A program made the position numbers and the translations under genes. Positions 3,570 to 49,100 of a DNA stretch of 64,000 bases are shown here, piece by piece. The stretch comes from Echinococcus granulosus (Eukaryota; Platyhelminthes; Cestoda; Cyclophyllidea; Taeniidae). The notes under the pieces are model-generated. The model did not search any database. It worked only from the letters and a program-made list of their open reading frames with translations, and was not told the origin of the DNA. The DNA lies in contig NW_020170452.1 of assembly GCF_000524195.1 (NCBI RefSeq), positions 295,431 to 359,430 of the forward strand. Reading direction: 5' to 3'. Positions within the stretch are counted from its first letter, which is position 1. Every line of letters begins with the position of its first letter.

Positions 3570-3860
3570 TTATCGTCGTCCAAACCTCGAGTGCGGTCTC
3601 CACGCAAACTGTGGGGAGCGACGAGAGATTTCTTTCGCCCAATAGGGATTCTCTATCATCATCTCTTCATCAAGATCACTGAGGAGAGGGTAGCGCTTGG
3701 CTACCCTGTATCGCGGAGGAAGGGAATCGATATCATCCTCAGCCTCTCCGACTGGCGTCGCAGCCGAGACCGCGGGTTCCGCCTCTCCATCGTAGTCATG
3801 GAGCCGAAGGCTGCTGGCGAAGTAGAAGAGTGTTAGAAGGGAAATGAAAGTACCGCGCAT
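3570..3860 (-). CDS. RFamide-type neuropeptide precursor
   Basis: A single exon encodes a 96-aa secreted precursor. Residues 1 to about 18 are a signal peptide (MRGTFISLLTLFYFASS), followed by an acidic spacer. Dibasic sites lie at K55-R56 and R80-R81, and the protein ends G94-R95-R96 then stop. Cleavage after R81, trimming of the final RR and use of G94 for amidation would release a 12-residue peptide, SPQFAWRPHSRF-amide. A second peptide (57-79, starting YPLLSD) would be released between the dibasic sites without an amidation glycine. One amidated peptide at the C-terminus of a short prepropeptide is common among flatworm neuropeptides. The RPxSRF ending loosely recalls NPF/FMRFamide-like endings, but I cannot assign a named family. 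Chosen start: the first ATG, directly ahead of the hydrophobic core. It would act as an extracellular signal after convertase processing. Confidence 0.85.
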   Translation of the reverse strand: MRGTFISLLTLFYFASSLRLHDYDGEAEPAVSAATPVGEAEDDIDSLPPRYRVAKRYPLLSDLDEEMMIENPYWAKEISRRSPQFAWRPHSRFGRR

Positions 3861-3905
3861 TATTTTGACTGCGGTCTTTTGTACAGGTGTATGATGCGAG
3901 TCTAG

Positions 3906-3931
3906 GCTTTTAAGCGCCTACACTGACCAAT
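3906..3931 (-). promoter_or_regulatory. promoter elements of the neuropeptide gene
   Basis: On the gene strand there is a TATA-like CTTAAAAG (3906-3913), about 46-53 nt upstream of the ATG. Just above it is an inverted CCAAT box (plus-strand CCAAT at 3927-3931, context ACCAATCAG). Spacing suits a core promoter with a short 5' UTR. This is inferred from motif and position only. Confidence 0.45.
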
Positions 3932-12662: not shown

Positions 12663-12762
12663 NNNNNNNNNNNNNNNNNNNNNNNNNNNNNNNNNNNNNN
12701 NNNNNNNNNNNNNNNNNNNNNNNNNNNNNNNNNNNNNNNNNNNNNNNNNNNNNNNNNNNNNN
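12663..12762. other. assembly gap (100 N)
   Basis: Exactly 100 consecutive N, the conventional length for a scaffold join of unknown size. Sequence on the two sides need not be adjacent in the genome. Confidence 0.95.
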
Positions 12763-28011: not shown

Positions 28012-31000
28012 TCATCCATTATTCTTCAGTCCCACTAAGGTTGGAGATGGGAGTAAGTGAATGAAATAGACCACTTACCTGATGCAGCTTCAAAGGCCTT
28101 TTGACCCTCTAATGTCGGAATTGGCGAAACTACAAAAAATTCGTAAATGAAAGTTATTAGGAAGTGTAAGAGAAGAATGAACAAATGGGTGGTAGAACGT
28201 ATGGTAGGAGGAATGGACACGGGACGGATATGCAATGCAATATTTATACATGAATAAATTGGAATAAAATTAGGACAAACTTACCATCAACTATGATTGT
28301 TGCCTCGCCTTCCTCTATGACTGCTAAAGGCAGAAAATGCAATTGTGGGTAGATTAACGAGTTATGACTCAAAAAGTTGCGTTTAAGAGTTGGGGAAATG
28401 AGATTTTAAGCGTACCTTTCTCCTCAGCAGCTTTTCTTTCAATTTCTTTCTCATCAGAACCTGGAAAAAAAATCATCCCTTATGAAAACAAACGGATCGC
28501 TTAAACCCTACGCGAAATTAATAAAATTCGCTTAAAAAGGAATCATTTTTCCCATAGTACTATATTTTTGTAACAAGCAATTTTTCGCATACCTTCATCA
28601 TCACGCAACTTCTTTTCTTCTATTAGACCTGTAACAACCAATTTTTGGTAAAATTATGATGCCTCTTCTACTTTATAACATTAATGGACAAATCGGCTTT
28701 CTAAATATGATATTAAAATACTCTAATCATTCATCTTCTTGGCAAACTTAACCTCTTTTCAAATAAAATCTTTTCAAATTCAAATATTGCTACTAATTTG
28801 ATTCAATAACCGATGGAGTCATTGCCAATTCCTTGCCTAAATCAACATTCGAAGATTCTCCCTGGCGGAAGAAATTTAAAACGCCAAAATAACCAACCTT
28901 GGGTTTCATTCCTCCGTTCACATCACTCACGTTAATTGTATTTGAGACTTATAATTAATGGGGTTTTAATCAGTAAAACTCGCAATTAAAAAAGCAGAAA
29001 GATAGAAGAAGGATAGATACTGGATGGATCTATGTGGAGTAACAGATGGATAAATACGAGGTGAATGGATAGAATCAGGGTATATTGATGGAAGTATAAA
29101 CTCATGGGCACATACAAGATGGATGGAAACGGAATCGACCAAAAGGCATCATTTATGGATACATGAGGGTAAAAACGAACTATTTGGAACAAAATGAAGG
29201 CACACATACCATCTACTTGAGCATGAGCTTGTCCTCCATCTGCTTCCATGACGGCTGGAATTGGAAAAATGCAGGATTAATCAGGTTTACGAGTATATGT
29301 ACATATATATAAGTGATCATTTTCATTTCTCGTGAGCATCAAACACACCTTCTTCATCGTCAAACTTTACTGAGATTGCTTCCGCAGCCGAGGCTGAAAT
29401 TAATTGAATGTATGAAAGCAAACGGATCACTTAAGCTTCACTCCAAGTTAAACATATTTATTCAAAACAAATCCACTTTTCCATTATCCCAGTAACAGCA
29501 ATTACCTCCGTATTTTTCGGCAAACATGTTTCCTAATCAGGAGAAAACTTTTATACATACCTTTCTCATCCTGCGATTTCTCCTCCTCTGTAGACTCTGA
29601 AATAAAATTTGTCATTAGCACAATGACACCACTTATACTTTTAAATTTTTTTCAAACATTGCGACTTCCTAAATGAGATATTGAATGCTAAGACCAAATA
29701 TTTTTCCGACAAATATAATTTGTTTTTAAAAAAATCCCATCTCATACAAATATTGTCACTGCTAGCTTGCATTAAAAAATCGTTTCATTAACTGGAAATA
29801 TAGAATGGATCATTTGGCTTCCAAAATGATATGAAAGTTTACTTTTCCAAGCAGACTTAGCAAACATGAAGGAAACGAATTTCTGTAGGGGGTGGTTTAA
29901 TTTTTACCAAGTCGAATGTACCTTTGATCTGCTAATTTTAAAAAAAGCCATAAAGGAAGTTAAATTTTAACAATCAGGTTTTATATTGAAATTATTGCAC
30001 CATCACAAGCAGATTGAAGTCACGCAAAGCGGAGTGCTGAAACCATGGTAATACAGGAAGATGATTTCTTGTAGATTTCACTGATGTCAAGCCAAACATC
30101 ATGGAACCTGGCCAAGACCAGAATACAAGCACATAGGCATGATTGTTGGAATTGCAAAAATGTACGATAATAAGAGTCTTTCCAGCTCCGCAATTTAATC
30201 TTCAGTCTCATGGTTTGAAGGTATAGTAAAACCATGCACTGGTAGATCTTTAAGGAGAACTCGAATGCTGCAATAGTGATAACTCCGGTTCAAAGGAAGA
30301 AAAATCTTTTCTGTCACTGATTTTAAATAAGCAGAGAGTCGGCTGTGGATATCTGTTTCTGAGGAATTTCAAAACAGAAGGACTATTAAAACCATATTGA
30401 AATGATTAGTAAAGGTTCCCTCTCGAGCTTAAGGAGGCTGACCATTCCCCAGAGAGTGACTGATAGAGGAGGTATTTACATGCCGGAACCTCGAAAAACC
30501 AAACAAATAATGGGGCTTTAAGAAGTCGCTTTAGTTTAAGCACTTTATAGAATTTATTAAGACCCCTAAAGTGCATGACCCCATGAAAATCGCTTGAGCT
30601 ATAAGGTTTTGAGGGTGACCATGGGTCCTCAAAATATCCAAGCTTGTAATGAGGGCAGTAATACTTCGGATAATATATTTGACAATTAAGGACAGGTCGG
30701 CAAAGGTAGCAAAAAGCAAAAAATGACATAAATGAATAAACTGCCGCAAATATTTTCACTCTAAAATCCGACATTCTTAGCAGCCATACCATAAGCTTGA
30801 AATGCACACTAATGCATTATTACGTACGAAGACAAAAATGGAGGAAAAACCTTTACACCTGTCCCAAGTATTTGTTTTTGAAAATAATGGTCACTGAATA
30901 AGGTGGTTGATGCGTGACAACAAAATTTGGAACTGAATATTCTGCAACTAGCAAACAAGCTAAGGCGATCTGTTTTGATTGTTTATCAATCAGAGTTGTG

Positions 31001-34000
31001 TTCCATGTCTAAAATTTTGTCGATGTTTTTAGCTAACCCTGGTTACTACTCTCGGTCAATTACGTCAACCTGTCTGACAATAAAGTGAGAAAAAACATTT
31101 TGGCAGAGGACGATAATCTTACTATTCAGGCACTTCTAGCTTGTTGGTACTTTATGACATTAAATTTTGCATTTTCCGTCAGGAAGTGTCAGTTAATTAG
31201 GGTAGCAAAATCTGCAAGTTAATGTTAAAACACTTGTCATCAGTCGTAAAACATCGACGAATTATTATTAACGGGTACTTATTGAAGACCCAAAAAATGA
31301 AATGAATAGTGATAAAGGCGGAAAGTCACGTGGGACTTCCAAGTGTTTCAAAATTTTCACAATATCTCGAACTGTGCACGGACATGAAGTATTTTAATCA
31401 TGAAGTCGCAAATTTATTAATTTTACGAAATAAACTTCTTTAATTGAGTAAGTACGAGTACTGCGACAGAAAATAGGAAAAAATGGTTAAGTAAATAAAT
31501 TTTCGTCATCAAAGTTTAAGTGATTATAATAGTGTGAGGATGCATTCAGTATAGGCGGATTAAAAATACGAAAAAATGCGAAGGCATTAAAAATAGTGGA
31601 TTAAAAGGCTAAAGCGTGAGAGTATGTATAGATGGGTGAATTGAGGATGGATGCGGGATGCTTGAGGAGGGAATGAAAGGATATGGGGGGCATGAACACG
31701 GGACGGATGAATGAAGGTATGAATTCATGGGTGCACGCGGGGTGAAAGGAAATGGGACTTATGCGGAATGCATCGTTTGTGGATACCAAAGGTTAAATAA
31801 ACGATTTGGGCATAGGATGAAGACAAACTCACCATCTATATGCACGAAGCCTTCTCCTCCCTCTGAAGTAGCTAAAATTGGAAGATGCAGGTGTATTTTT
31901 TTCCAGCATATGCACACGCACAAAAGTGAACACTTTTGTCTGCTAAGAGTATCAAGCATACCTTCCAAGACGGCAGCATCCCTTTCGGCTCCTTCCACAT
32001 CAGAACCTGAAAGAAAATGTCCACATAAATACAAATGGAACACTTAGGCTTTACTCCGAAGTGGCTATATCTATCCAAAGTTGGAATCCCTTTCCCATTA
32101 CCCCAGTAAGATCAGTTACCTCCGTACTTTTTGACTGACATATACGTACCTTCGTCTGCATGCGATTTCTGATCATCTTTGGGACCTGAGAAAATCAGAG
32201 TTTTTGTGAAAACAATGGTGCTGCTGCAATGGCTAACCCTAATGGACAAAGCAACTTCCTAAGTACAATATTATGATACAATGGTCATTTATTTTCTCGG
32301 CACACGTCACTCCCGTTCAAACGAATTTCCATCTAATACACATATTTTGCTATTTTTACTCCATAAACCGATGAGATCTTTGACATTTCCCTACCTGGAG
32401 CGCCGTCCGAGGTTTCTTCCAGGCTCTTGATCACATTTGTCTCGTCTAAAAGAAAAAAAGTAAGACCGCAAAATAACCAACTTTGCGATCCATTCTTTTG
32501 TCTACAATCCACGTGTTAATTGGCGTCTACTTCATCGTATTTATGACTCATAATTAATGCGTTTTAATTACATATGCTTGCACTTAAATAAGTGAAAAAC
32601 GCAAGATGGATTGGTAACGGATGAATAAAGAAGGAATGAATGGGAGGTTGGATGCAGAATAAATAGAATAATGGAGAGAGATGGATGGAAGGATGGAGAC
32701 CAGTGGACGAATGAACTAATGGCTGAGTGAAAATGGAATGAATGGATGGATACAGGAGGAATGTATGGATTAAGTGACACGGGATGGATGGTTAGATAAA
32801 TGAATACATGGATGGATAGAAATTGGATGGAAGATGCAAGAAAACGAGATGGATGGATGAATGCAGAACGGAAGCGTGGATGAATGGATAGGTAGATGTG
32901 GCTGGGATGAGTGGATAGAAGGAAAAGGGGATATATACCTGTATGGAAATCAGATAAATGAACATGCATCTTGAGGTGAAGATGAAAAAAGGATAGGCAG
33001 GACAGGGATGGGAAGATAAATGCATATACATATGTACTTGGTGGATCAATATGGGATAGGTACGGAATGTATCAGTTATGGAAAACTAAGTTCAGGTAGA
33101 ACCGATACAAGGCAGAATGAAGGCAAGCATACCGTTTGTTTGAGCATGAGCTCCTGCTTTATCCGCTTTCATGACCGCTAAAATAAGAAATTACAGGGTT
33201 AATAAGTTTTACGAGCATATATACACGCATAGATGTGAGTATTTTTGTCTGCCATTAGTATCAAATATACCTTCTTTGTCGGTAGCATTTCCCTCGATTA
33301 CTTCCGCAGCTGAAACTGAAATTAATCGTCCGTAAGAAAGCAAACAATTCACTTAAGCTTCACTCTAAATTACTAATATTTATTTAACAACAAATCCCCT
33401 TTCCCATTACCCCAGTACCATTAGTTGCCTCCATATTTTTCGCCAAACAACTTCTTCTTATGAATCAAAGCCTATACGTACCTTCCTTGCCGGGCGTTTT
33501 CTTCTCCTCCGTGGGCTCTGAAACAATTGTTGGTGAAACAATAATATTGTTTCGACTTCTAAGTTTATAAGACCTAGCGGCTTAGCGACTTAGCGTTTTC
33601 TAGCCGGACGTAACTCCTTTTCACCCACATTTCTATCAAAGACAAATATTGCGACCAATTTACACCAACAACAGATGTAATCTTTGCTACTCCCTCACCT
33701 TGATTAACCATCGGGGATTCGTTTTCTTCCAAGTCCTCATTTGTCGTGCCTAAGAGAGGATAAGTAAAAAGATAAAATAGCATTCATATGAGCTTCTTCC
33801 TTCTTTCCTATCACATGACTAATGTCCATTGTCGTCCAACCAGCTTTCCATTTGCGACTCACAATTTACGCGTTTCTAATAATTAATACTTGCATTTTAA
33901 GTACTTTGAACAGACAGAAGTTTAGACTGAAACATTTGGCTTCTAAAATGATATGAAAATTAGACTCTCTACGTAGATTTGGCAAACATGAAGGTGGGAA

Positions 34001-37000
34001 GGAATCTGCGATGACTGAGCAGGTGATGTCTGATTTTGTTAAGGATTGCTTTTCTATCAAGTTAAATGTACGTATGATCTGCAATTTTTAAAGACAATTA
34101 TTGCATACTCGCAAGCAGATTGAAGCCAAGCAAAACGAGGTATTAAAACCATAAAAATGTGGTAAGATAATTTTGTTGATCGTACCAATACCTATATCAA
34201 CATTCGGGGATCCGTCCAAACGATAAAAATAGCACTCCGTTGATCTCTTATCCTCCTCTCACATCACTCCTGCCTATTGCGTCTACCTAGTTTCCTATTT
34301 GTGATTTGTCGATAATGCATTTTTGATTGTTAATGTTTGTCTTTTAAAAAGTCAAACGATACCAAACGGATGGATACCAGAATGGATGAGTGCATAGATG
34401 AATGGAAAATGAAAGAAAAGATGCATACGAAATCGACGCAGCGTTGGCCGGCTGGATTGAGAAATTAATGAATACACACGGAATGGAAGAAAACGGGATG
34501 CATACGGAGTGCATTAGTTGTGGATGCTTAAGAGTGGGCACGAACCATTTGGGTTAGAATGAAGTTAAACTTACCATTTACTTGTACATGGCCTTCCCCT
34601 ACATCTGACATCGCTACAATTGAAAAATGCAAAAACGTGTGTTTACGGACATGTCTGCATACATAGAAGGCACCATTTATTTATCGTTTATCAAACATAC
34701 CTAGTTTTCTTTTTACTTCGTCCGCAGCTTGACAAGAAAAATTTCAGCTTCATGAATATGAGAAAATCACCCAAGTCTTAGCCATAATTAATTACATTCA
34801 TACATTTAACCTCCCTTTTTCATTACATCAGTAAGATTAGGTATCACGGTATTATTCGTCAAAATGGCTCTATTTTACGACTAAAATTTATGCTTACCTT
34901 CTTCACCATGCGGTTTCTTATCTTCTATAGAGCCTGGAAGAAAATCATATTACTTTGAAACAATGATGCCACTTCTCTCTCTAGACTTGTTAGACAGCGT
35001 AGCTTTCAAACTACGAAATTAAATGCAACAGTCAATTGTTATCTCGATTGAAGTAACTCCAGTTTGAAAGAAGTCACGTCAAATTCTGCCACTGCGGCCA
35101 TTTAACAAAAACCAGTAGGGTCTGTGCCATTTCCTCACCGAAAAGATAATATGATGATTCATTTGTTTTCTTGTCTACATGTGTCTCGTCTGGAAGAGGA
35201 AAACAAGCTATAAAATACCATACTTTGTGTCCTATTCCTCCTCTAATTTCATTTGTGCTAAATGACTTCTACTTGATCGCTTTCACGGCTTACGATTAAT
35301 GCAGTTTTATGTAGAAGTGAAAAGACACAAGATGGATAGACGAATAGATGGATGGAAAGATGAATGGATGGATGGGTACGGGACGGATGGACACTTGGAC
35401 GAATTGATGCGAGATGGATTGACAAATAAATAATGAAATCATAGATAAAAATAGGATTTATACGGAATGGATAAGTTGTGGTTACGTATAGGCAAGCAGG
35501 TAAGAATTAAATTAGGATGAAAAACTTTTCCTTAATCTGAAATCGCCTATATTGAAAAAAAAAGTCTCCAAACATATGTACACACATAAGAGCAACTATT
35601 TCCATTTGTCAAGAGTATCAAACGTACCATCCCTGTCGGTAGCCTCTCCTTCGATCCCTTTAGCGGCAGAACCTGAAAGAAATTGTCCGTATAAATGCAA
35701 CTGGACCACTTAGGCTTTACCCCCAAATTAACTATACTTTTCCAGCAATGGGATTCCTTTCCCATTACCCTAGCATCATAATTTGCCTCCGCACCTTTTG
35801 GCAGATACAGCTCCCTTTCAGGAATAAAATTTTACGCGTACCTTCCCCATTATACGATTTCTTCTCTTCTCTAGAACCTCGAAAAATTGATTTCCCTCAG
35901 AAACAATGGTGACACTTTCATTTTAAAACAAATTGGTCAACGCAAAATGCTCTGGTCAACGGTTTTCTAGGCACGTGTTACTCCTGTTGAAACGATAAAC
36001 AAAAATTTCAAATCCTTACCTGGAATGTTGAATGAGGGTCCTTCCACTGTCCTTTTCCCATTCGTCACGACTGTAGGGGGAGAGTGAAACGATAAAATAG
36101 CCCTTCTTTAGGTTTTATTCTTTCCAAAACACGACTCGTGTCAAATGCCCTCAACTTATTTGTACTTACGACTCCCAATTAATGTATTTCTAATAGCCGA
36201 ATGCTTGTATTTAAAGCAGCAAAATTACACAAGATAGATAGGTACTGGATGAGGACATGCATAGGTTGGTGGTAGGGGAATGAATGGACGAATGAAACCC
36301 TGGATAAGGGATGGATGGAGGGAGGGGTGAGAAGGTGGGCGGATACGGTTTGGATAATAGGTGGATGTTTCGAAAAGTTTCTAAATAGACTTCTAATCTA
36401 CTCTAACAGGAGCTCCTCCTGGGTCTCTTATTTCCAAAATCGTAAGACCATAGCTGTGACTATTCTCGTGATCCTAAATAAATGTATGGTAAAGGTGATT
36501 CTTTAGCAACAAATAGGAAGAATTGTGTTTACAAATTACGACATTTAAGTAAAAAAGTGCGCCTTCCTCTCCATACCATGGGAAAATGCAGTAAACTCAT
36601 ACCTTAGGTTAAATGAGTGCCAAGTTGATGATTTTGATTAGGAAAATTGCAGAATGATTAATTTTTGACCTGACAGATACAGGGCTTGTGATAGGTCTAA
36701 TCGCACTTTGATAATTAGTACAGCCTCTTAAACCCTAGAAACACTACACTAATCCAAAACGCTCCGCTAAGAGTTAATCCCGAAATTACAGTCTTTCTTC
36801 AACTGTAGCCAAATTTTATTTGTTTTGTTTTTGATAAAGACGTAATATTAGGCTTGAACAAAAATGATTCGCTGTTATAAGCCACAAAATATATACATTG
36901 AAACGGCTTTCCTCTATGTCAGTAATGATACACAAAGTAGAACTAAACATCTGCATTAAATTCTTTCGTTGTTTTGAAAAAGGAGAGGAAAAAAAATTAA

Positions 37001-38932
37001 GACAAATGGGAAGTGACTAGCTGAATTTGAGGGATTGGCACAAAGCATGAATGAAGTCGACAACTAGGTACCGTGGGAATGACCTCGTAGTGTCATCCCG
37101 TCCTCAATAGCCTTGAAATGTCTATATAACGACGTGGTAGGCTGAACTTGAGCATAAAATTTACTCATGGGGGAAATGAATGAGTGATGGATTTATTAAA
37201 CAAAAAAGGGAAAGTGAGATAATAAAGCGAGCATATTGTTGAGCCAGTAGTAAAAGTGGAAGAGGCTTGGAAAGGACGACTACCAGAATAAACTAATGAG
37301 GAATGGATGAGCGGTTTGCAAAAAATGAGCTTTATCAACATTAGTCTTATAATCGGAATCACCGCAAGAAAAATCCTGCACTTTCCTTACCACCAAGCGG
37401 TTCATTCCCCTGCGGTAGCTTAGCTTCTTCTGAAGTTTCTGTTGAAATAGAAGGAAAAGGGAGATGTTTGATATTTCATTGCAAAACAAAAGGACCACAG
37501 AATACTCATCTCCCGTTTTACTTAAAATCGGCTGTTTACACCTTACGATGCCAGCAATCATTTAAACTAACCATTGGTGATGACCGTCGTTTCTGCATCT
37601 AAAAGTGTAAAAAAATACACAATGCAAATGATTCCAAGAAGAATGGAATACTGCTGGCACCTTAACAATTTGTAGGTAAGGAAAAAATATGCCTCAGGAG
37701 GGGACAGAGAACATTCTTCGATTGTGTTTAAGAGGAATTAACTGATAAATGAGTGGTTACATAGTCTGGTGAACAGGGTGGCAGTCGTAGAGTGCTATGC
37801 GTCTGACAGGTTAACTGATACATATCAGACCGATTAGGCCTCTCAGTGAAATGATTTACAATGCGGATATTAAAAGGGATTAACAGACGTAGTTAGATAA
37901 CGACGAACAGACTATATCCTGAGATAGGATTAACTAAGCGCTAAAAAGGGGATGAGTAAAGAGAACAATAAAATCGGAAGAATCGAGGTATTACTGGCAT
38001 AGATGTGCGAGTATGTAGGCCAAGACTGGATTAGGGGACGACGGCGTAAAAAAGGTGATCAGGTAAATAGCAACCTTCAAATGGTTGCTATTGCATTAAC
38101 TATAAGTCGAGGTTGCCACTTTTTCGCAACATTTCAACACTCAATTCTTATGTTCACTAATCCACAAATTTACCTGACACAAAAAACGAAATGCAATTGA
38201 ATGAAATCTATAGCAAAGTTTCATAACAGCAATAACTGACTGTTTCATTGCTAAGTCTTTGCAGTAAAAATGTTTTTTGTCCAAAAGCTCTTACTATCAA
38301 AACTATTTGCATTTAGCTTTGTTGAATGCCAGATGTATTTGCTAAGACAATGCTGCCGACTGCGAAATAAACAATACAAACATGCGCAATTCAGGCAAAA
38401 AATATGTTTAAATGTACTTTTGGAGATGCAAATTCCTGGTTAGAGGCGGTGTCGTTTTTAGGATGACAAATTAGTAAAGAATTTGATTTGTTAACTCCAA
38501 ATGATAAATTACTTTTCCATTTTTGGTGTTATAACGTGATGTAATTAACCTCGTGGACGTAGAAAGCAAATTACGAGAGTTCGACTGAACTAACCCGAAA
38601 ATACAATCACCCAAGTAACAAAAATGACAGATTTTCCTATAAATAAGTCGTATTAAGTTATTGATATAAAAATTGTTTCAATTAAGTGTCTTGAAACGTG
38701 TTAAAATGGATTCAGACGTATTTTTGGGCTTATTGTACAAATGGATCAAGAATTTTTTTGCAACACCTAACAAAACACCAGCCTAATTCACCTCCGACTT
38801 AAAGTAGCTCAAAACTGCCACTGCATTATCAAGAGGGATTCAGTGTTGGTTACCAAATTATCACTTACTCGTAAAAGCGCATCCAAAGAGGGCGAAAATG
38901 AGTAGGAAAATCAACCGAGAAGGCGAGCGCAT
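28012..38932 (-). CDS. secreted micro-exon (MEG-like) gene with repeated exon cassettes
   Basis: Predicted 26-exon gene, about 360 aa. Exon 1 (38869-38932) encodes a signal peptide, MRSPSRLIFLLIFALFGCAFT, and ends in phase 1 at a GTAAGT donor. Internal exons, descending: 37572-37598, 37391-37429, 36020-36070, 35842-35877, 35628-35672, 35139-35189, 34898-34933, 34701-34727, 34575-34613, 33699-33749, 33482-33517, 33271-33315, 33133-33177, 32395-32445, 32150-32185, 31962-32006, 31833-31871, 29561-29596, 29349-29393, 29210-29254, 28593-28628, 28416-28460, 28285-28323, 28079-28129. The last exon is 28012-28034 (ends GLKNNG, TGA). Every internal exon is 27-51 nt, divisible by three, phase 1-1, with AG/GT borders. 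The product is acidic, rich in E, D, K, G and A, and repetitive. Schistosome MEGs share the signal peptide plus symmetric micro-exon plan; the assignment to that class is by architecture, not homology. The 3' end is the least certain part: read-through after 28079 stops at 28035. Confidence 0.82.
28079..28628 (-). repeat. exon cassette 6 (C6-B6-A6) and final D7
   Basis: C6 28593-28628 (36 nt, GLIEEKKLRDDE), B6 28416-28460 (45 nt), A6 28285-28323 (39 nt, AVIEEGEATIIVD), then D7 28079-28129 (51 nt, VSPIPTLEGQKAFEAAS). D7 has the D length but the most diverged sequence. Confidence 0.76.
28830..28875 (-). pseudogene. decayed D exon of cassette 6
   Basis: Lies where a D exon is expected, with an acceptor-like 'cttccgccag'. 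The frame then hits TGA and the donor reads GC instead of GT. Its 'gaatcttcgaatgttgattta' resembles the remnant near 34.2 kb. Confidence 0.5.
28985..29180 (-). repeat. CATC/CATT-type satellite in A5-to-C6 intron
   Basis: Degenerate short tandem repeat, GGATGGAT/GGATGAAT-like on the plus strand and therefore ATCCATC/CATTCATC-like in the transcript. Same type and position as in the other inter-cassette introns. Confidence 0.6.
29210..29596 (-). repeat. exon cassette 5 (C5-B5-A5; D missing)
   Basis: C5 29561-29596 (36 nt, ESTEEEKSQDEK), B5 29349-29393 (45 nt, ASAAEAISVKFDDEE) and A5 29210-29254 (45 nt). No D exon could be found between A4 (31833) and C5, where about 2.2 kb of unrelated or repeated intron sequence lies. 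Confidence 0.78.
29610..31590 (-). other. long intron insert between cassettes 4 and 5
   Basis: About 2 kb on the gene strand between A4 and C5 with no supported exon. The part 29800-30060 is duplicated at 33915-34170. A 133-codon open frame at 30406-30807 (-) has no start context, splice borders or recognised domain and is probably chance. Confidence 0.4.
31605..31760 (-). repeat. CATC/CATT-type satellite after cassette 4
   Basis: Degenerate GGATG/GAATG repeats on the plus strand directly downstream (gene strand) of A4. Confidence 0.55.
31833..32445 (-). repeat. exon cassette 4 (D4-C4-B4-A4)
   Basis: D4 32395-32445 (51 nt, DETNVIKSLEETSDGAP), C4 32150-32185 (36 nt), B4 31962-32006 (45 nt) and A4 31833-31871 (39 nt, ATSEGGEGFVHID). 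Followed on the gene strand by satellite and a long unrecognised insert (29.6-31.6 kb). Confidence 0.8.
32600..33060 (-). repeat. CATC/CATT-type satellite between cassettes 3 and 4
   Basis: The longest satellite block of the gene, with many GGATGGAT, GAATGGATG and ATGGATGG units on the plus strand, lying between A3 and D4. Confidence 0.75.
33133..33749 (-). repeat. exon cassette 3 (D3-C3-B3-A3)
   Basis: D3 33699-33749 (51 nt), C3 33482-33517 (36 nt, EPTEEKKTPGKE), B3 33271-33315 (45 nt, VSAAEVIEGNATDKE) and A3 33133-33177 (45 nt, AVMKADKAGAHAQTN). A3 is nearly the same as A5 (29210-29254). Confidence 0.8.
33900..34230 (-). pseudogene. remnant of a lost cassette (decayed D exon plus intron)
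   Basis: Around 34195-34225 the gene strand reads 'ggatccccgaatgttgata', resembling the end of D3 ('gaatccccgatggttaatc') but without intact borders. The stretch 33915-34170 matches 29800-30060, so both are copies of the same intron region. This implies an extra cassette whose exons were lost. Confidence 0.5.
34355..34520 (-). repeat. CATC/CATT-type satellite after cassette 2
   Basis: Diverged GGATGGATAC/GAATGGATGAG units on the plus strand downstream of A2. Confidence 0.5.
34575..35189 (-). repeat. exon cassette 2 (D2-C2-B2-A2)
   Basis: D2 35139-35189 (51 nt), C2 34898-34933 (36 nt, SIEDKKPHGEE), B2 34701-34727 (27 nt, shorter than the usual 45) and A2 34575-34613 (39 nt, AMSDVGEGHVQVN). 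All have canonical borders. Confidence 0.75.
35325..35480 (-). repeat. CATC/CATT-type satellite after cassette 1
   Basis: GATGGATAGACG/GATGAATGGATGG units on the plus strand, between the broken A1 and D2. Confidence 0.6.
35525..35550 (-). pseudogene. decayed A exon of cassette 1
   Basis: Sits where an A exon is expected and keeps its start (gene-strand CGATTTCAGAT, compare CGATGTCAGAT of A2). It has an in-frame TAA, a shifted acceptor and no GT donor at the expected place. Skipping it leaves the reading frame intact because its neighbours are all phase 1-1. Confidence 0.6.
35628..35672 (-). repeat. exon B1 of cassette 1
   Basis: 45-nt B-type exon encoding (G)SAAKGIEGEATDRD, with flanking ctttcag acceptor and GTACGT donor. 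It aligns with the B exons at 33271, 31962, 29349 and 28416. Confidence 0.75.
35842..36070 (-). repeat. exon cassette 1 (D1, C1)
   Basis: First cassette of the micro-exon gene: D exon of 51 nt (36020-36070, VTNGKRTVEG..) and C exon of 36 nt (35842-35877, SREEKKSYNGE). Its B exon (35628-35672) is intact and its A exon is broken (separate entries). Confidence 0.75.
36235..36365 (-). repeat. CATC/CATT-type satellite upstream of cassette 1
   Basis: GGATGAGGA/GAATGGACGAATG/GATGGATGGAGG units on the plus strand, in the intron before D1. Confidence 0.5.
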
Positions 38933-44699: not shown

Positions 44700-46136
44700 A
44701 TGAGACTTGACGTTAGTTACTGCCTTCACTGATCACATTTTAGTAGCTGATGAGGGTATAACAGGACAGTTGCAGTATCTAGGCGTTGTCCACAACCAAC
44801 CTTTTACCACCACCACCGTTTATACCCAAGGCTTGTCAACTTCTGCCCAGGGGTCCCTTACATAAAGACACTCGACATTTGATGAGCAATGGTGGTGAAA
44901 CTTCTCAGTGATCACCTCAACGTGGTCGACACGCTTCTTCATTGATCCTTCAACAAAATTATCCCCTTGTGACAAATGCCTCTCAGAAGGCTTTAGGTAC
45001 TGGACTGTTACAGTTACTGAGTTTACTTTGTTATAACGATGTAAGTGCGACTACTTACCATTGTACCTAAAATCCCCTCCTTAGTGAAGAATGATAGCCA
45101 CTTTCTCCCTACCGATGAAGTATTCACTGGGGTTTCTACCTCCACTCTCTGTTTCAAACATTACATACCATGAATAATCTATCAGCTCTCCGCGAACCTA
45201 ACCCACCCTCACAAATTCATTCGGGCATATTTTATTCTAATATGTGTTTACGTACACCCTACAATTGCTAGAGTGGAACAAAAATTATGCTGTCAGTTAG
45301 CTTAAAGGAACGACAAATATTGCCATCATCGAAAATGTAAGGGCGCTTTTGTTGAGGGTCCCTTCTTTAACTCATACCATTAGCAAGCTTAGAAGGCCCC
45401 ATTAAAAGCTCACACGGACACGCATCCCTTTTGAGTGAGACGGTGTGCCCCAACCCGGCCCAACTTCACCGCATACATGTGTTGGACGGCTCACAGTCTC
45501 TAAACCTATCGTAGATTGCAAACCAAAGTTTGAATTTTCTTCAAGTGCTTTCCCAAAGGTAAAAGGATATAGCCAGGCGAAAAGATGCGTGTTGCTTGTT
45601 AATTCCCGATGTTTACCACATCAACCCTGGCACATGCCTTCTTGTTTTGCATGAGCAAACAAGCCTATGTGAAGGGTAGCACATCTGTCTCCTATTCGCA
45701 CTACTTCTTATAGTCGTGGCAATTAACACCATTATTTTCTTTGCTTTCTCCAGACCGTTGGATTTTAATGGTCGCTAGGCAGCGGAAAAATCTAGGGACT
45801 CAGTACAGTTAACTGATCCCGAATATCTGTTTCTAGTCTAATTTACATACGAAATGACTAGACTTAAAATTACTTACACAAACTATTTGCTAATAAATGC
45901 TAACTACGTTAATGCTTGTTAGATTGAGCAGTATTCCACGTCATTTTCCTGGAAGAACTGATGAAGTTATCGTTTATGGCCCCGAACCCGACAAAAAATT
46001 TGTAGAGCCCTATTAAGTAGACACTTTTTGAATTGTTTTGAAATATCTTGTGGAGCGCTTATTACTAATCAGCATATAAGTTTGTTCTAATGCGCTGGGC
46101 TTTCGGTTGTCCGTCTTTGTTAAGGGTACTTACATT
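44700..46136. other. intergenic, hnRNP K-like gene upstream region
   Basis: No supported exon or classic TATA/CCAAT arrangement was identified. Transcription of the next gene presumably starts in the last few hundred bases, since a TATGCG.. to ATG stretch at 46.09-46.14 kb lacks stops in frame. Confidence 0.35.
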
Positions 46137-49100
46137 ATGAAGCGTGACGGTCGCGAGTTTGATAACGAAGTTCCTCCGAAAAAGGTGCAAAGGGGGGATG
46201 TTTCGAATATAGCAGTAAGGTTTTTGATACCAGCTCGTGCTGCCGGCCTAATTATCGGCAAGGGAGGTGAAAACATAAAGAGGATTCGGAACCAGGTTAC
46301 TATCTCTTCCGCTTGCTATTCATAAAGTTTTTTTTGAAGTTCTACTCCGCTCTAGGTTGCTACTGGTTTCTAACATATGTTATTATTTTCGTTCCTTTTA
46401 CGCTTCCACGTTATCCATGACGTCACGACCTCGCATATCCTTGAAAACACGCAAATTTCTGGCCTCGAACTCCACGTCTAATGAACATGTTTACGTTTAC
46501 CCTTGGTTTGCTTATTGCGTCTCACTAACGCACCACTAAACTCTTGGGTAACGTCGACTCGGCGATTTTTTTCACTGTTTGCAGTTCTCAGTGAGACTGA
46601 ATATTCCCGACACGAGGGGCATTGAACGGTAGGACACGGACTGGATGTCGTTTTATTCTCTCCTCATTTTCCCTCCTTTTTGTTATCAGATCGCTTTTAG
46701 CAGCTGCCTAGCTCCACCAAAATTAACCTGCATGCTCTCTAGGACGGTTTCCAAACGTACCTGGCTATAGAAAATACGAAATAGAAATACTGCAAAGGCA
46801 GCTGCGGCTTTAGACATCTCTCTCTCTCTCCTTGTCTTTCCTTTTACGCTTGTCTTGTCGTTGAGGTGTGCTATTTTCCTTTGCTTCTTTGAATAGTGTT
46901 TTCACGATTGAAGGCGCGTTGGGTGATATTTGCAACGTATGGAGAGATATAATGCCGAAGCTGAAGGTGAGTGTTGCGCTCTCTCTTTGCTCTAAGATCC
47001 CTCTCTTCGTAGGATGTCATGAGTGCAAAACTTTCCGACCCCAAGGTGATAATGGGTCAGCAGCGTTTCCCTCGTCGAAGACAGCAGCGAAATCAAGGTG
47101 AAGGTGATCAGCCAGAGAATGAAGATGCGGAGGAGGAGGAGAAGATGGTGGATTTGAGGCTACTGGTGCATCAGAGCATCGCCGGATGCATTATTGGCAA
47201 GGGTGGCGAGAGGATACGCGAATTGAGGCAGAAATACCAGATGCGGGTGATTAAGGTGTATCAAATGCTCGCACCCTGTTCCACCGATCGTGTCGTTCAG
47301 TTGATTGCGGAACCGGAAAATGCGGTCCAGTGTATGGAGGCGATTGTGGAAGTTGCTGAGGTACGCTTCCCCATCGCTAAAGCTTTTTTGAAGGCTCGGA
47401 TAGCGGGCTTTTAATCTGGTAGACTGAGTGTTCTCCTTTGGGTGAATTCCTGTATTGATCCTAATGGCGGTTGCCCAGTCTTCTTGGGTTAATACTCGGT
47501 TTCCAATGCATTAGGTCTGAAATCCGTGAACAGTTGGTTTTAGGGCCCTGAGACTATTGGCGTAATGAGCGAACAACTTGGTCTCGTGACTTTTTATTCG
47601 ATCCGAGTAAGCGCCAGCGCTTGGCAGATGCTGTTGACGCTTTCTGCTACTTTTTTTCTGGCTTGACTTTCTCAAGGCCTTTCAGATACATCCGTACCAC
47701 ACGCTAGGGAGGAATAATGTCGTGAACTTTATTTTTCGGTGAAATGGAATTGGTATTCTGATACTCATTGGGGGAATGAGTTTCTATGCTCTCTAGAAGC
47801 GGAATGGATTTGAATTACGTCCTCTTTTAGGTCGTCTGACACTTCATGCTTTTGTCTGTTTTGGTAGTCTGATATTCGACTAGACAGGTTGTTACCACGC
47901 CATATTGTCTTGCGCCAGAAATGCTATTTTAGCTTAGGAATAGGTTTGGGTCGTTTAACCATTGCAGAAGTCCTTCGCTAATTAGGGCGTAATTAAATTC
48001 CATATGCGTCTCTTTCGGAGTGATGGTGTAATACGGCCTGTGTGGTAATGGTTACCTTAATACGGTATCGTACTCTTTAGTGCTTGCAGCTTCCATAGTT
48101 TTGAATGAGCGGGGCCAAGGCTTTGTCGCGGGAGACCAACTTTATTGTGCTCTTTTTAAGACTTTAGGCGAGGCGGTTCGATTTCTGCGGTTCCTAGTCG
48201 TTGAATGGTTTAAAGTGGATTTGTCTCTAAACCCGCTCCAGACTGCCTTCGATCCTGCCTACGCGTCATTGTACGTGCTACCCTCGACATCCCTAGTTAT
48301 TGTAGTCGCAGACGGCGGCGCTGTGGCTTCACCTAGTTGGAGGGTGAATGACGGTGGGAAATATGCATTGCCGAGACTGTTTGCGGTTTCGGTTAGAGGC
48401 CACACATTACCCAGGTTTTATCGCGATTCTTATTTAAGTATATTCGGGAAGTTGGCGTGAGCTGAGTAATTTCCAGCAATGTGCATGTTTTGTGTACCAT
48501 TTGCATTTTGCACTGTCACAGCTAACCCTTGAGTGTATTTGGCTAGCACAGAGCACTCTCTAGGCATCCCCGTCGCAGATGTATCTGCTATTATTACGCT
48601 CCGTCCTGCAACCTTGGAAGGTACCGTACCTTAAAATTGGATTTTGAGCTTAATGGTAACCGGTTACCTTCTTATTCAAGTCTCTGTTATCTGCCATAGC
48701 GCAATCGTTGTAGAATCTAGATGTGAATGCTTTTGTAGACCTAGATTTTTGACGCAGTTTAGTGTTGTAAGCGTCCGTCTAGTGGAAATTCGCGCAATCG
48801 TACTATAACAAATCAATAATAATGACATGATAGTGAATCCCAAAGGAATTAAATAAAGTAGGAACGTTTTTGCCTTGCTTAATTTTCACAACCTCGTTTC
48901 AGCAGTCTAAATATCAGACTTGTAGTCCGCTTTATGCTTCGCTGTCATCTAGTTCATTGAAACCGCCATCTCCCCGGGTGAAAACAAGTTTGCTGGGTTT
49001 AGTTGCCTTATAGCATGGCTAGGACTATAGACCTCCAGTAAAACCTGGGCACTTTCTCACTTTCCGATTCAAGCCTCTCCTATCTTGACTGGTAAATTTC

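What the first reader, a model, noticed from the sequence alone, without database searches (positions are those of the whole stretch)
28012..38932. A previously unannotated-looking secreted micro-exon gene with about 24 symmetric exons
Seen directly: a signal-peptide exon ending in phase 1 is followed by a long chain of 27-51-nt exons. Each is flanked by AG and GT, is divisible by three and is phase 1-1. The chance of so many short open segments with matching phase in one orientation over 10 kb is negligible. Known: micro-exon genes with this plan were described in schistosomes as secreted, variably spliced proteins at the host interface. Inference: this is a member or a convergent analogue in another flatworm lineage. 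Its size and cassette structure differ from the schistosome MEGs I know of.
Basis: partly seen in the sequence, partly recalled or inferred. Interest (0 to 1): 0.95.

Follow-up and report, generated by a model that had tools for sequence, protein, structure and literature searches.

The report
Tapeworm gene of duplicated micro-exons
A tapeworm gene for a probably secreted protein is built from 24 tiny interchangeable exons, most of which arose by repeated copying of a four-exon block; it is a striking example of a gene type already known in parasitic flatworms.

Summary
On the minus strand, 38932 down to 28012, lies a predicted 26-exon gene: a hydrophobic signal-like exon, 24 internal exons of 27-51 nt, all divisible by three, phase 1-1 and open, and a short terminal exon. 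A scan for strong splice pairs that ignores length modulo 3 found 14 pairs in the locus, 14 of 14 divisible by three, against 30 of 89 in 200 kb of the same contig. New here: 21 of the 24 exons form six tandem copies of a four-exon cassette (51-36-45-39/45 nt), with three slots lost and one exon shortened by multiples of three. Between cassettes, exons have diverged about as much as introns. Marker genes point to a taeniid tapeworm. Micro-exon genes are already reported from tapeworms (PMC7653826); this gene meets that paper's rule, but not the stricter schistosome rule (exons of at most 36 nt). Best reading: a real tapeworm micro-exon gene, with no second copy found, grown by cassette duplication. 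Secretion, exon skipping, expression and function are inferred, not shown.

The parts
38869..38932 (-). exon 1: start codon and hydrophobic signal-peptide-like stretch (21 codons + 1 nt, phase 1)
   Evidence: (boundary two bases off there); best 8-residue Kyte-Doolittle mean 3.48; SignalP not run
37572..37598 (-). exon 2, 27 nt, symmetric phase 1-1, outside the cassettes
37391..37438 (-). exon 3, 48 nt, symmetric phase 1-1, outside the cassettes
35628..36070 (-). cassette A: exons 36020-36070 (51), 35842-35877 (36), 35628-35672 (45); fourth exon dead
35520..35546 (-). dead fourth exon of cassette A (approximate): acceptor AG present, about 20 nt with the donor deleted
   Evidence: alignment and printed sequence
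34575..35189 (-). cassette B: 35139-35189 (51), 34898-34933 (36), 34701-34727 (27, shortened from a 45-type exon), 34575-34613 (39)
33133..33749 (-). cassette C: 33699-33749 (51), 33482-33517 (36), 33271-33315 (45), 33133-33177 (45)
31833..32445 (-). cassette D: 32395-32445 (51), 32150-32185 (36), 31962-32006 (45), 31833-31871 (39)
30138..30174 (-). possible remnant of a fourth exon of a further, lost cassette; acceptor AG absent
   Evidence: score 99 against cassette E, maximum 90 in 100 random sequences, one of 30 comparisons; collinear with repeats D7 and D8; weak
29210..29596 (-). cassette E: 29561-29596 (36), 29349-29393 (45), 29210-29254 (45); no 51-type exon found
28837..28861 (-). degenerate 51-type exon of cassette F (approximate): about 25 nt left, GC in place of the GT donor
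   Evidence: alignment: its flanks match other cassettes
28285..28628 (-). cassette F: 28593-28628 (36), 28416-28460 (45), 28285-28323 (39)
28079..28129 (-). last internal exon, 51 nt, symmetric, donor 9 of 9 to consensus; sequence not clearly related to the 51-type exons
28012..28034 (-). terminal exon with stop (alternative: the 44-nt intron is kept and translation stops at the TAG at 28035)
   Evidence: (boundary four bases off there); reading of the sequence

Best explanation
A real, probably secreted micro-exon gene of a taeniid tapeworm, on the minus strand: a signal exon, 24 symmetric phase-1 exons and a short terminal exon, together 1,092 coding nt (363 aa if every exon is used). It grew by repeated tandem duplication of a four-exon cassette. 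Since every internal exon is 0 mod 3 and in the same phase, single exons can be gained, lost, shortened or skipped without a frameshift. Predicted product: an acidic, glutamate-rich protein without cysteine, probably disordered, released outside the cell. Inferred mechanism: exon skipping gives many length and sequence variants of one soluble protein at a host-exposed surface or in a gland, while selection keeps exon frame and splice sites but lets the amino acids drift or diversify. Shown from sequence: exon plan, cassette duplication, exon loss, frame retention. Inferred: transcription, secretion, alternative splicing, host-facing role.
For: Exon plan and blind controls. Cassette repeats with exon boundaries in register. 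Cassette tree: C with E 100% bootstrap; A with D against the rest 78%. Alignment gaps in live exons are 6 and 12 nt; intron gaps take many lengths. 21 of 24 cassette slots are intact; a neutral-decay model run on the 24 internal exons keeps on average 8.3 of 24 at branch length 0.2 and 5.3 at 0.3 (maximum 15 and 13; at 0.1, mean 13.8 and maximum 21), and intron distances of the two closest pairs are 0.38 and 0.43, i.e. about 0.2 per branch. Exon divergence is like that of introns: exon identity higher in 8 of 15 cassette pairs, equal in 2, lower in 5. Composition counted exon by exon: 87 acidic, 37 basic, 0 Cys, 0 Trp of 342. No other copy seen in the 103.6-Mb assembly with four DNA queries and the signal exon.
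Against: No transcript or protein evidence. Amino-acid constraint is weak: pooled dN/dS is 0.62 over 35 within-family exon pairs, but the same count in the two wrong frames gives 0.66 and 0.85, so this ratio hardly marks the frame; within the 51-type exons pN (0.50) exceeds pS (0.44). The neutral-decay model ignores indels and treats exons as independent, and at branch length 0.1 it would not exclude the observed number. Two acceptors are unusual (GAG at 35877, AAG at 34727). The end of the gene is ambiguous. No AATAAA or ATTAAA lies within 600 nt after the stop (nearest 620 nt). The copy-number searches are shallow: the B and F queries did not find their own sister cassettes.
Confidence: 0.61

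Rival explanations
1. A constitutively spliced secreted repeat protein: all exons are always used; symmetric exons are only a by-product of the way cassettes duplicate, and there is no isoform diversity.
For: Tandem duplication of symmetric exons is what any gene grown this way would keep. Most splice sites are good (donors 6 to 9 of 9 to consensus for the model exons), with no systematic weakness that would force skipping.
Against: Exon-length variation, loss of single exons (three of 24 slots) and intron-like divergence of exon sequence suggest that no particular exon is required. Micro-exon genes of schistosomes do skip exons (PMC7653826 and PMC4015677, passages).
Confidence: 0.3
2. A decaying relic: formerly a micro-exon gene, now losing exons.
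For: Dead fourth exon of A, missing or degenerate 51-type exons in E and F, and a possible lost cassette at 30.1 kb.
Against: All 24 remaining exons are open with AG/GT intact; neutral decay at about the observed divergence leaves a minority intact; the signal exon and the stop are intact.
Confidence: 0.07
3. A mobile element or satellite that happens to carry splice-like motifs.
For: Repeated units with related introns.
Against: Four DNA queries found matches only inside this locus (4, 1, 1 and 1 matches); units carry in-frame exons with matched splice sites. Copies as diverged as the more distant sister cassettes would be missed.
Confidence: 0.02
4. Convergent analogue of the aphid bicycle/megacycle effector genes: same plan (many micro-exons, introns after codon position 1, internal tandem duplication), unrelated by descent. 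Compatible with the best explanation, so its odds are not exclusive of it.
For: PMC9168663 (passages) describes internal exons that nearly all start with codon position 2, putative effector proteins, and a gene of over 100 micro-exons grown by internal tandem duplication.
Against: The CYC motifs of that family cannot be present: no cysteine in the counted residues after exon 1.
Confidence: 0.5

Closest known systems
Tapeworm micro-exon genes (Echinococcus multilocularis, 35; Hymenolepis microstoma, 52; PMC7653826, passages seen)
   Same: Runs of consecutive exons under 70 nt and divisible by three making up at least half of the exons; tapeworm
   Different: The passages describe ten of its genes as a family of tandem whole-gene copies; here one gene has six internal four-exon cassettes. 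Whether this locus is among their listed genes is unknown (supplements could not be read).
Schistosoma MEG-26.2/26.4 (PMC5825161, passages seen)
   Same: Signal peptide; internal duplication with repetition of the exon-length pattern
   Different: One internal repeat of the motif there, six cassettes here; amphipathic helix and sequence relation not tested
Schistosome MEGs in general (PMC5825161, PMC8293314, PMC4350168; passages seen)
   Same: Symmetric exons, signal exon, fast sequence change
   Different: Schistosome exons of 6-36 nt make about 80% of coding sequence; here exons of at most 36 nt make 25%, and 16 of 24 are 39-51 nt
Aphid bicycle and megacycle genes (PMC9168663, passages seen)
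   Same: Many micro-exons of one phase, putative effectors, internal tandem duplications in megacycle
   Different: Insects; CYC motifs, absent here

Membership tests
Micro-exon gene, tapeworm rule of PMC7653826 | at least seven exons, at least half of them under 70 nt and divisible by three, a run of at least four such exons | tested here: met
   24 of 26 exons are internal, under 70 nt and 0 mod 3, in one run of 24 (rule read). The gene model is predicted, not from cDNA.
Micro-exon gene, schistosome rule (PMC5825161, PMC8293314) | about 80% of coding sequence in symmetric exons of 6-36 nt | tested here: not met
   8 of 24 internal exons are 36 nt or less, 25% of coding sequence; symmetric exons of any size make 92%
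Micro-exon gene | signal peptide or exposed product | tested here: inconclusive
   Hydrophobic N-terminal stretch in exon 1; no signal-peptide program was available; highest mean hydropathy of an internal exon 0.72
Micro-exon gene | alternative splicing by exon skipping | not testable with these tools
   no transcript data
Micro-exon gene | no known domain | tested here: inconclusive
   Two unspliced open frames that hold three of the exons in frame (28035-28280, 31759-32043) gave no Pfam match at E 1; the joined product was not built
Schistosome MEG families | sequence homology to a numbered MEG | not tested
   no flatworm proteome on hand; the large protein search was not used
Aphid bicycle genes | CYC motifs | tested here: not met
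   0 Cys among 342 residues counted after exon 1; the motif name is from PMC9168663

The most novel reading that the evidence does not exclude
A single tapeworm locus works as a growing exon library: four-exon cassettes duplicate in tandem, exons then diverge at the intron rate while being held only to frame and splice sites, and skipping among 24 symmetric exons lets one gene make a very large set of secreted variants, a diversity source in worms said to lack classical antigenic variation (PMC4413821).
Probability: 0.22. Interest if true: 0.75.

Novelty: new member of a known kind. Interest (0 to 1): 0.5.

Why it matters
The cassettes keep a readable record of how a micro-exon gene grows: six diverged copies, dead exons and frame-neutral deletions side by side in one gene. 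That makes a testable case for how such genes arise, and whether selection acts on the exon frame rather than on amino-acid content. PMC7653826 (passage) calls curation of these genes across flatworm lineages a high priority.

Tried and rejected
Mobile element or dispersed repeat: disfavoured, no matches outside the locus. Other micro-exon genes nearby: none seen in the rest of the window or in 200 kb to the left on the contig; the right flank was not examined. Signal-exon relatives in the genome: only itself. Extra exons: 29506-29532 scores well but was left out because the aligned stretches of other cassettes lack usable sites (read); other candidates in long introns (31330-31371, 30480-30542) have no cassette support. 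A lost cassette in the 2,236-nt intron is only weakly supported (one of 30 comparisons; the other matches of that intron are to the stretch just after exon 4, or trivial); the first version of that test used gap costs too low for a local alignment and is not used. Positive selection: A/D has dN 0.55, dS 0.43 and intron distance 0.43; C/E 0.36, 0.46, 0.38; B/D dN 0.48, dS 0.83; D/F dN 0.53, dS 1.20: few sites and mixed, so not claimed. In-frame AG bias in exons (73 of 115) may simply follow from codons that start with G. Species naming: only the family level is claimed; a COX1-like match was translated over the wrong stretch, its bases were printed, and it was not pursued. Rfam: no match at gathering scores. 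Bacterial promoter scan: none found, not informative here. Not used: the large protein search, structure prediction and fold search.

Full report
What is there. Exon 1 (38869-38932) starts with ATG, codes for MRSPSRLIFLLIFALFGCAFT and ends in phase 1. Then come 24 internal exons of 27-51 nt, all between AG and GT, all divisible by three, all phase 1-1 and open, and a 23-nt terminal exon with TGA at 28012. One search printed exon 1 and the terminal exon with boundaries two and four bases off; they were corrected. Coding length is 1,092 nt, 363 aa, of which 92% lies in symmetric exons. The last intron is only 44 nt; if it is kept, the frame ends at the TAG at 28035 (read from the sequence).

More than chance. 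The 24 exons were chosen as open in phase 1, so their being open is not a test by itself; 10 of 24 are open in phase 0 and 9 of 24 in phase 2. Blind scan for phase-1 candidates: 17 in the locus (16 of the 24 model exons, one shortened, and 1 other), 0 on the plus strand, mean 0.86 and maximum 4 in 200 shuffles; the same splice sites read in phases 0 and 2 gave 9 and 8. In 200 kb of the same contig to the left (3,252 N), 1,140 strand/phase tiles of the same length gave mean 1.00 and maximum 5. Scan of strong acceptor/donor pairs of 24-60 nt without any frame rule: 14 of 14 divisible by three in the locus, 7 of 13 elsewhere on the minus strand, 5 of 14 on the whole plus strand, 30 of 89 in the flank. 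Of the 14, 11 are model exons, 2 are nested variants of these and 1 (29506-29532) is not in the model.

Repeat search and alignments show that 21 of the 24 exons belong to six cassettes, A to F in gene order, each 51-36-45-39/45 nt, with homologous introns. Three of the 24 cassette slots are empty: the fourth exon of A (donor side deleted), the 51-type of E (not found) and of F (degenerate). The third exon of B is 27 nt, which the alignment explains by a 6-nt acceptor shift and a 12-nt deletion, both frame-neutral. The fourth exon differs by one 6-nt indel between two forms (39 nt in B, D, F; 45 nt in C, E). Cassettes C and E group with 100% bootstrap, A and D apart from the rest with 78%; the place of F has 53%. 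The long D-to-E intron may hold the remains of one more cassette (weak).

How the exons evolve. Over 15 cassette pairs, exon identity (36-, 45- and 39-type columns; pairs with A include its dead fourth exon) is higher than intron identity in 8, equal in 2 and lower in 5. Pooled dN/dS over 35 within-family exon pairs is 0.62, but 0.66 and 0.85 when the same exons are read in the two wrong frames, so the ratio is a weak sign of coding constraint; it is the stops that tell the frames apart, 0 in the right frame against 41 and 84 pair-codons in the wrong ones, though the exons were chosen for that (the shortened B exon and the last 51-nt exon were left out, and the two lengths of the fourth exon were compared only within their own length). 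Yet splice sites and frame persist: a neutral model on the 24 internal exons, 2,000 runs each, keeps on average 13.8, 8.3 and 5.3 of 24 intact at branch lengths 0.1, 0.2 and 0.3 (maximum 21, 15 and 13). Intron distances of the closest pairs, 0.38 and 0.43, put the branches near 0.2 or more. This fits selection for being a usable in-frame exon, with little demand on the amino acids. It does not by itself show diversifying selection.

Product. Counted exon by exon, the 342 residues after exon 1 hold 17.5% Glu, 10.8% Ala and 8.8% Lys, 87 acidic and 37 basic residues, no Cys and no Trp; three N-glycosylation sequons lie within exons. The highest mean hydropathy of an internal exon is 0.72. So a soluble, secreted, largely disordered acidic protein is the likely product (inference; neither SignalP nor a disorder program was run). 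No fold was attempted, and the joined product was not built.

Organism and copy number. The assembly has 103.6 Mb in 272 contigs. The Pfam family Taeniidae_ag has 4 of 5 listed matches over its cut-off, 3 of these 4 within 10 kb of one contig; of 14 control genomes one rings, below the cut-off. A triosephosphate isomerase exon matches PDB entry 6oog at 90 of 94 residues, counted from the alignment (that this entry is Taenia solium is recalled). Hence a taeniid tapeworm, species not determined. DNA queries with cassettes C, B and F and with the exon 1-3 region find only this locus (4, 1, 1 and 1 matches), and the signal exon finds only itself. These searches are not deep: C found A, D and E, but the B and F queries did not find their sister cassettes.

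What is known. PMC7653826 (passages) reports micro-exon genes in E. multilocularis (35 by its rule) and H. microstoma (52), with a rule that this gene meets. PMC4413821 (passages) says such genes also seem present in tapeworms, mostly carry a signal peptide, and have no known function. PMC8293314 (passages) in contrast calls the class apparently restricted to schistosomes, and PMC4350168 (passages) restricted to platyhelminths, with high dN/dS in mature MEG parts. PMC5825161 (passages) gives the schistosome definition (6-36 bp, about 80% of coding), which this gene does not meet (25%), and describes internal duplication in MEG-26. PMC12998952 (passages) shows that one schistosome MEG lyses host cells; nothing here says that this gene does so. 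PMC9168663 (passages) describes aphid bicycle and megacycle genes, which share the micro-exon plan, intron phase and internal duplication. Passages of six further papers added nothing on tapeworm micro-exon gene structure. DeMarco 2010 (schistosome micro-exon gene splicing) and Tsai 2013 (tapeworm genomes) were not held. Nine literature searches listed no paper whose title or shown abstract describes a tapeworm micro-exon gene with this cassette structure; two searches listed only 20 of 2,334 and 20 of 33 papers, and supplements were not readable.

Verdict. Observation confirmed; interpretation right in kind. The gene is a new member of a known class, unusual in its long exons and six-fold cassette structure. 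Interest is moderate: it becomes high if transcripts show wide combinatorial skipping.

Noticed in passing
window 3570-3917, minus strand: Short precursor-like frame with a hydrophobic start, a KR site and the ending ...RSPQFAWRPHSRFGRR, which looks like an amidated neuropeptide precursor; no Pfam match.
   Followed up: partly
window 46080-46325 and 47013-47414, plus strand: Two frames with KH domains; the second is closest in the PDB to poly(rC)-binding protein 2.
   Followed up: partly
window 12663-12762: Run of 100 N, an assembly gap.
   Followed up: no
L005 and L006 (contig C84, 42156-43243): Two cytochrome oxidase subunit 1-like stretches, each with one TGA, inside a 106-kb contig: mitochondrial sequence joined in assembly, or a nuclear copy.
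   Followed up: no
window 29506-29532, minus strand: Additional well-scored 27-nt symmetric phase-1 candidate exon between the 36- and 45-type exons of cassette E; sites not usable in the aligned sister cassettes.
   Followed up: partly
internal exons, e.g. 33271-33315 and 28285-28323: 73 of 115 AG dinucleotides inside the exons lie at in-frame positions, so alternative acceptors a few bases inside an exon would keep the frame; may follow from codon content.
   Followed up: partly
L007, L008, L009 and L011 (contig C251, about 280-290 kb): Small cluster of Taeniidae antigen family matches, three of four over the cut-off.
   Followed up: no
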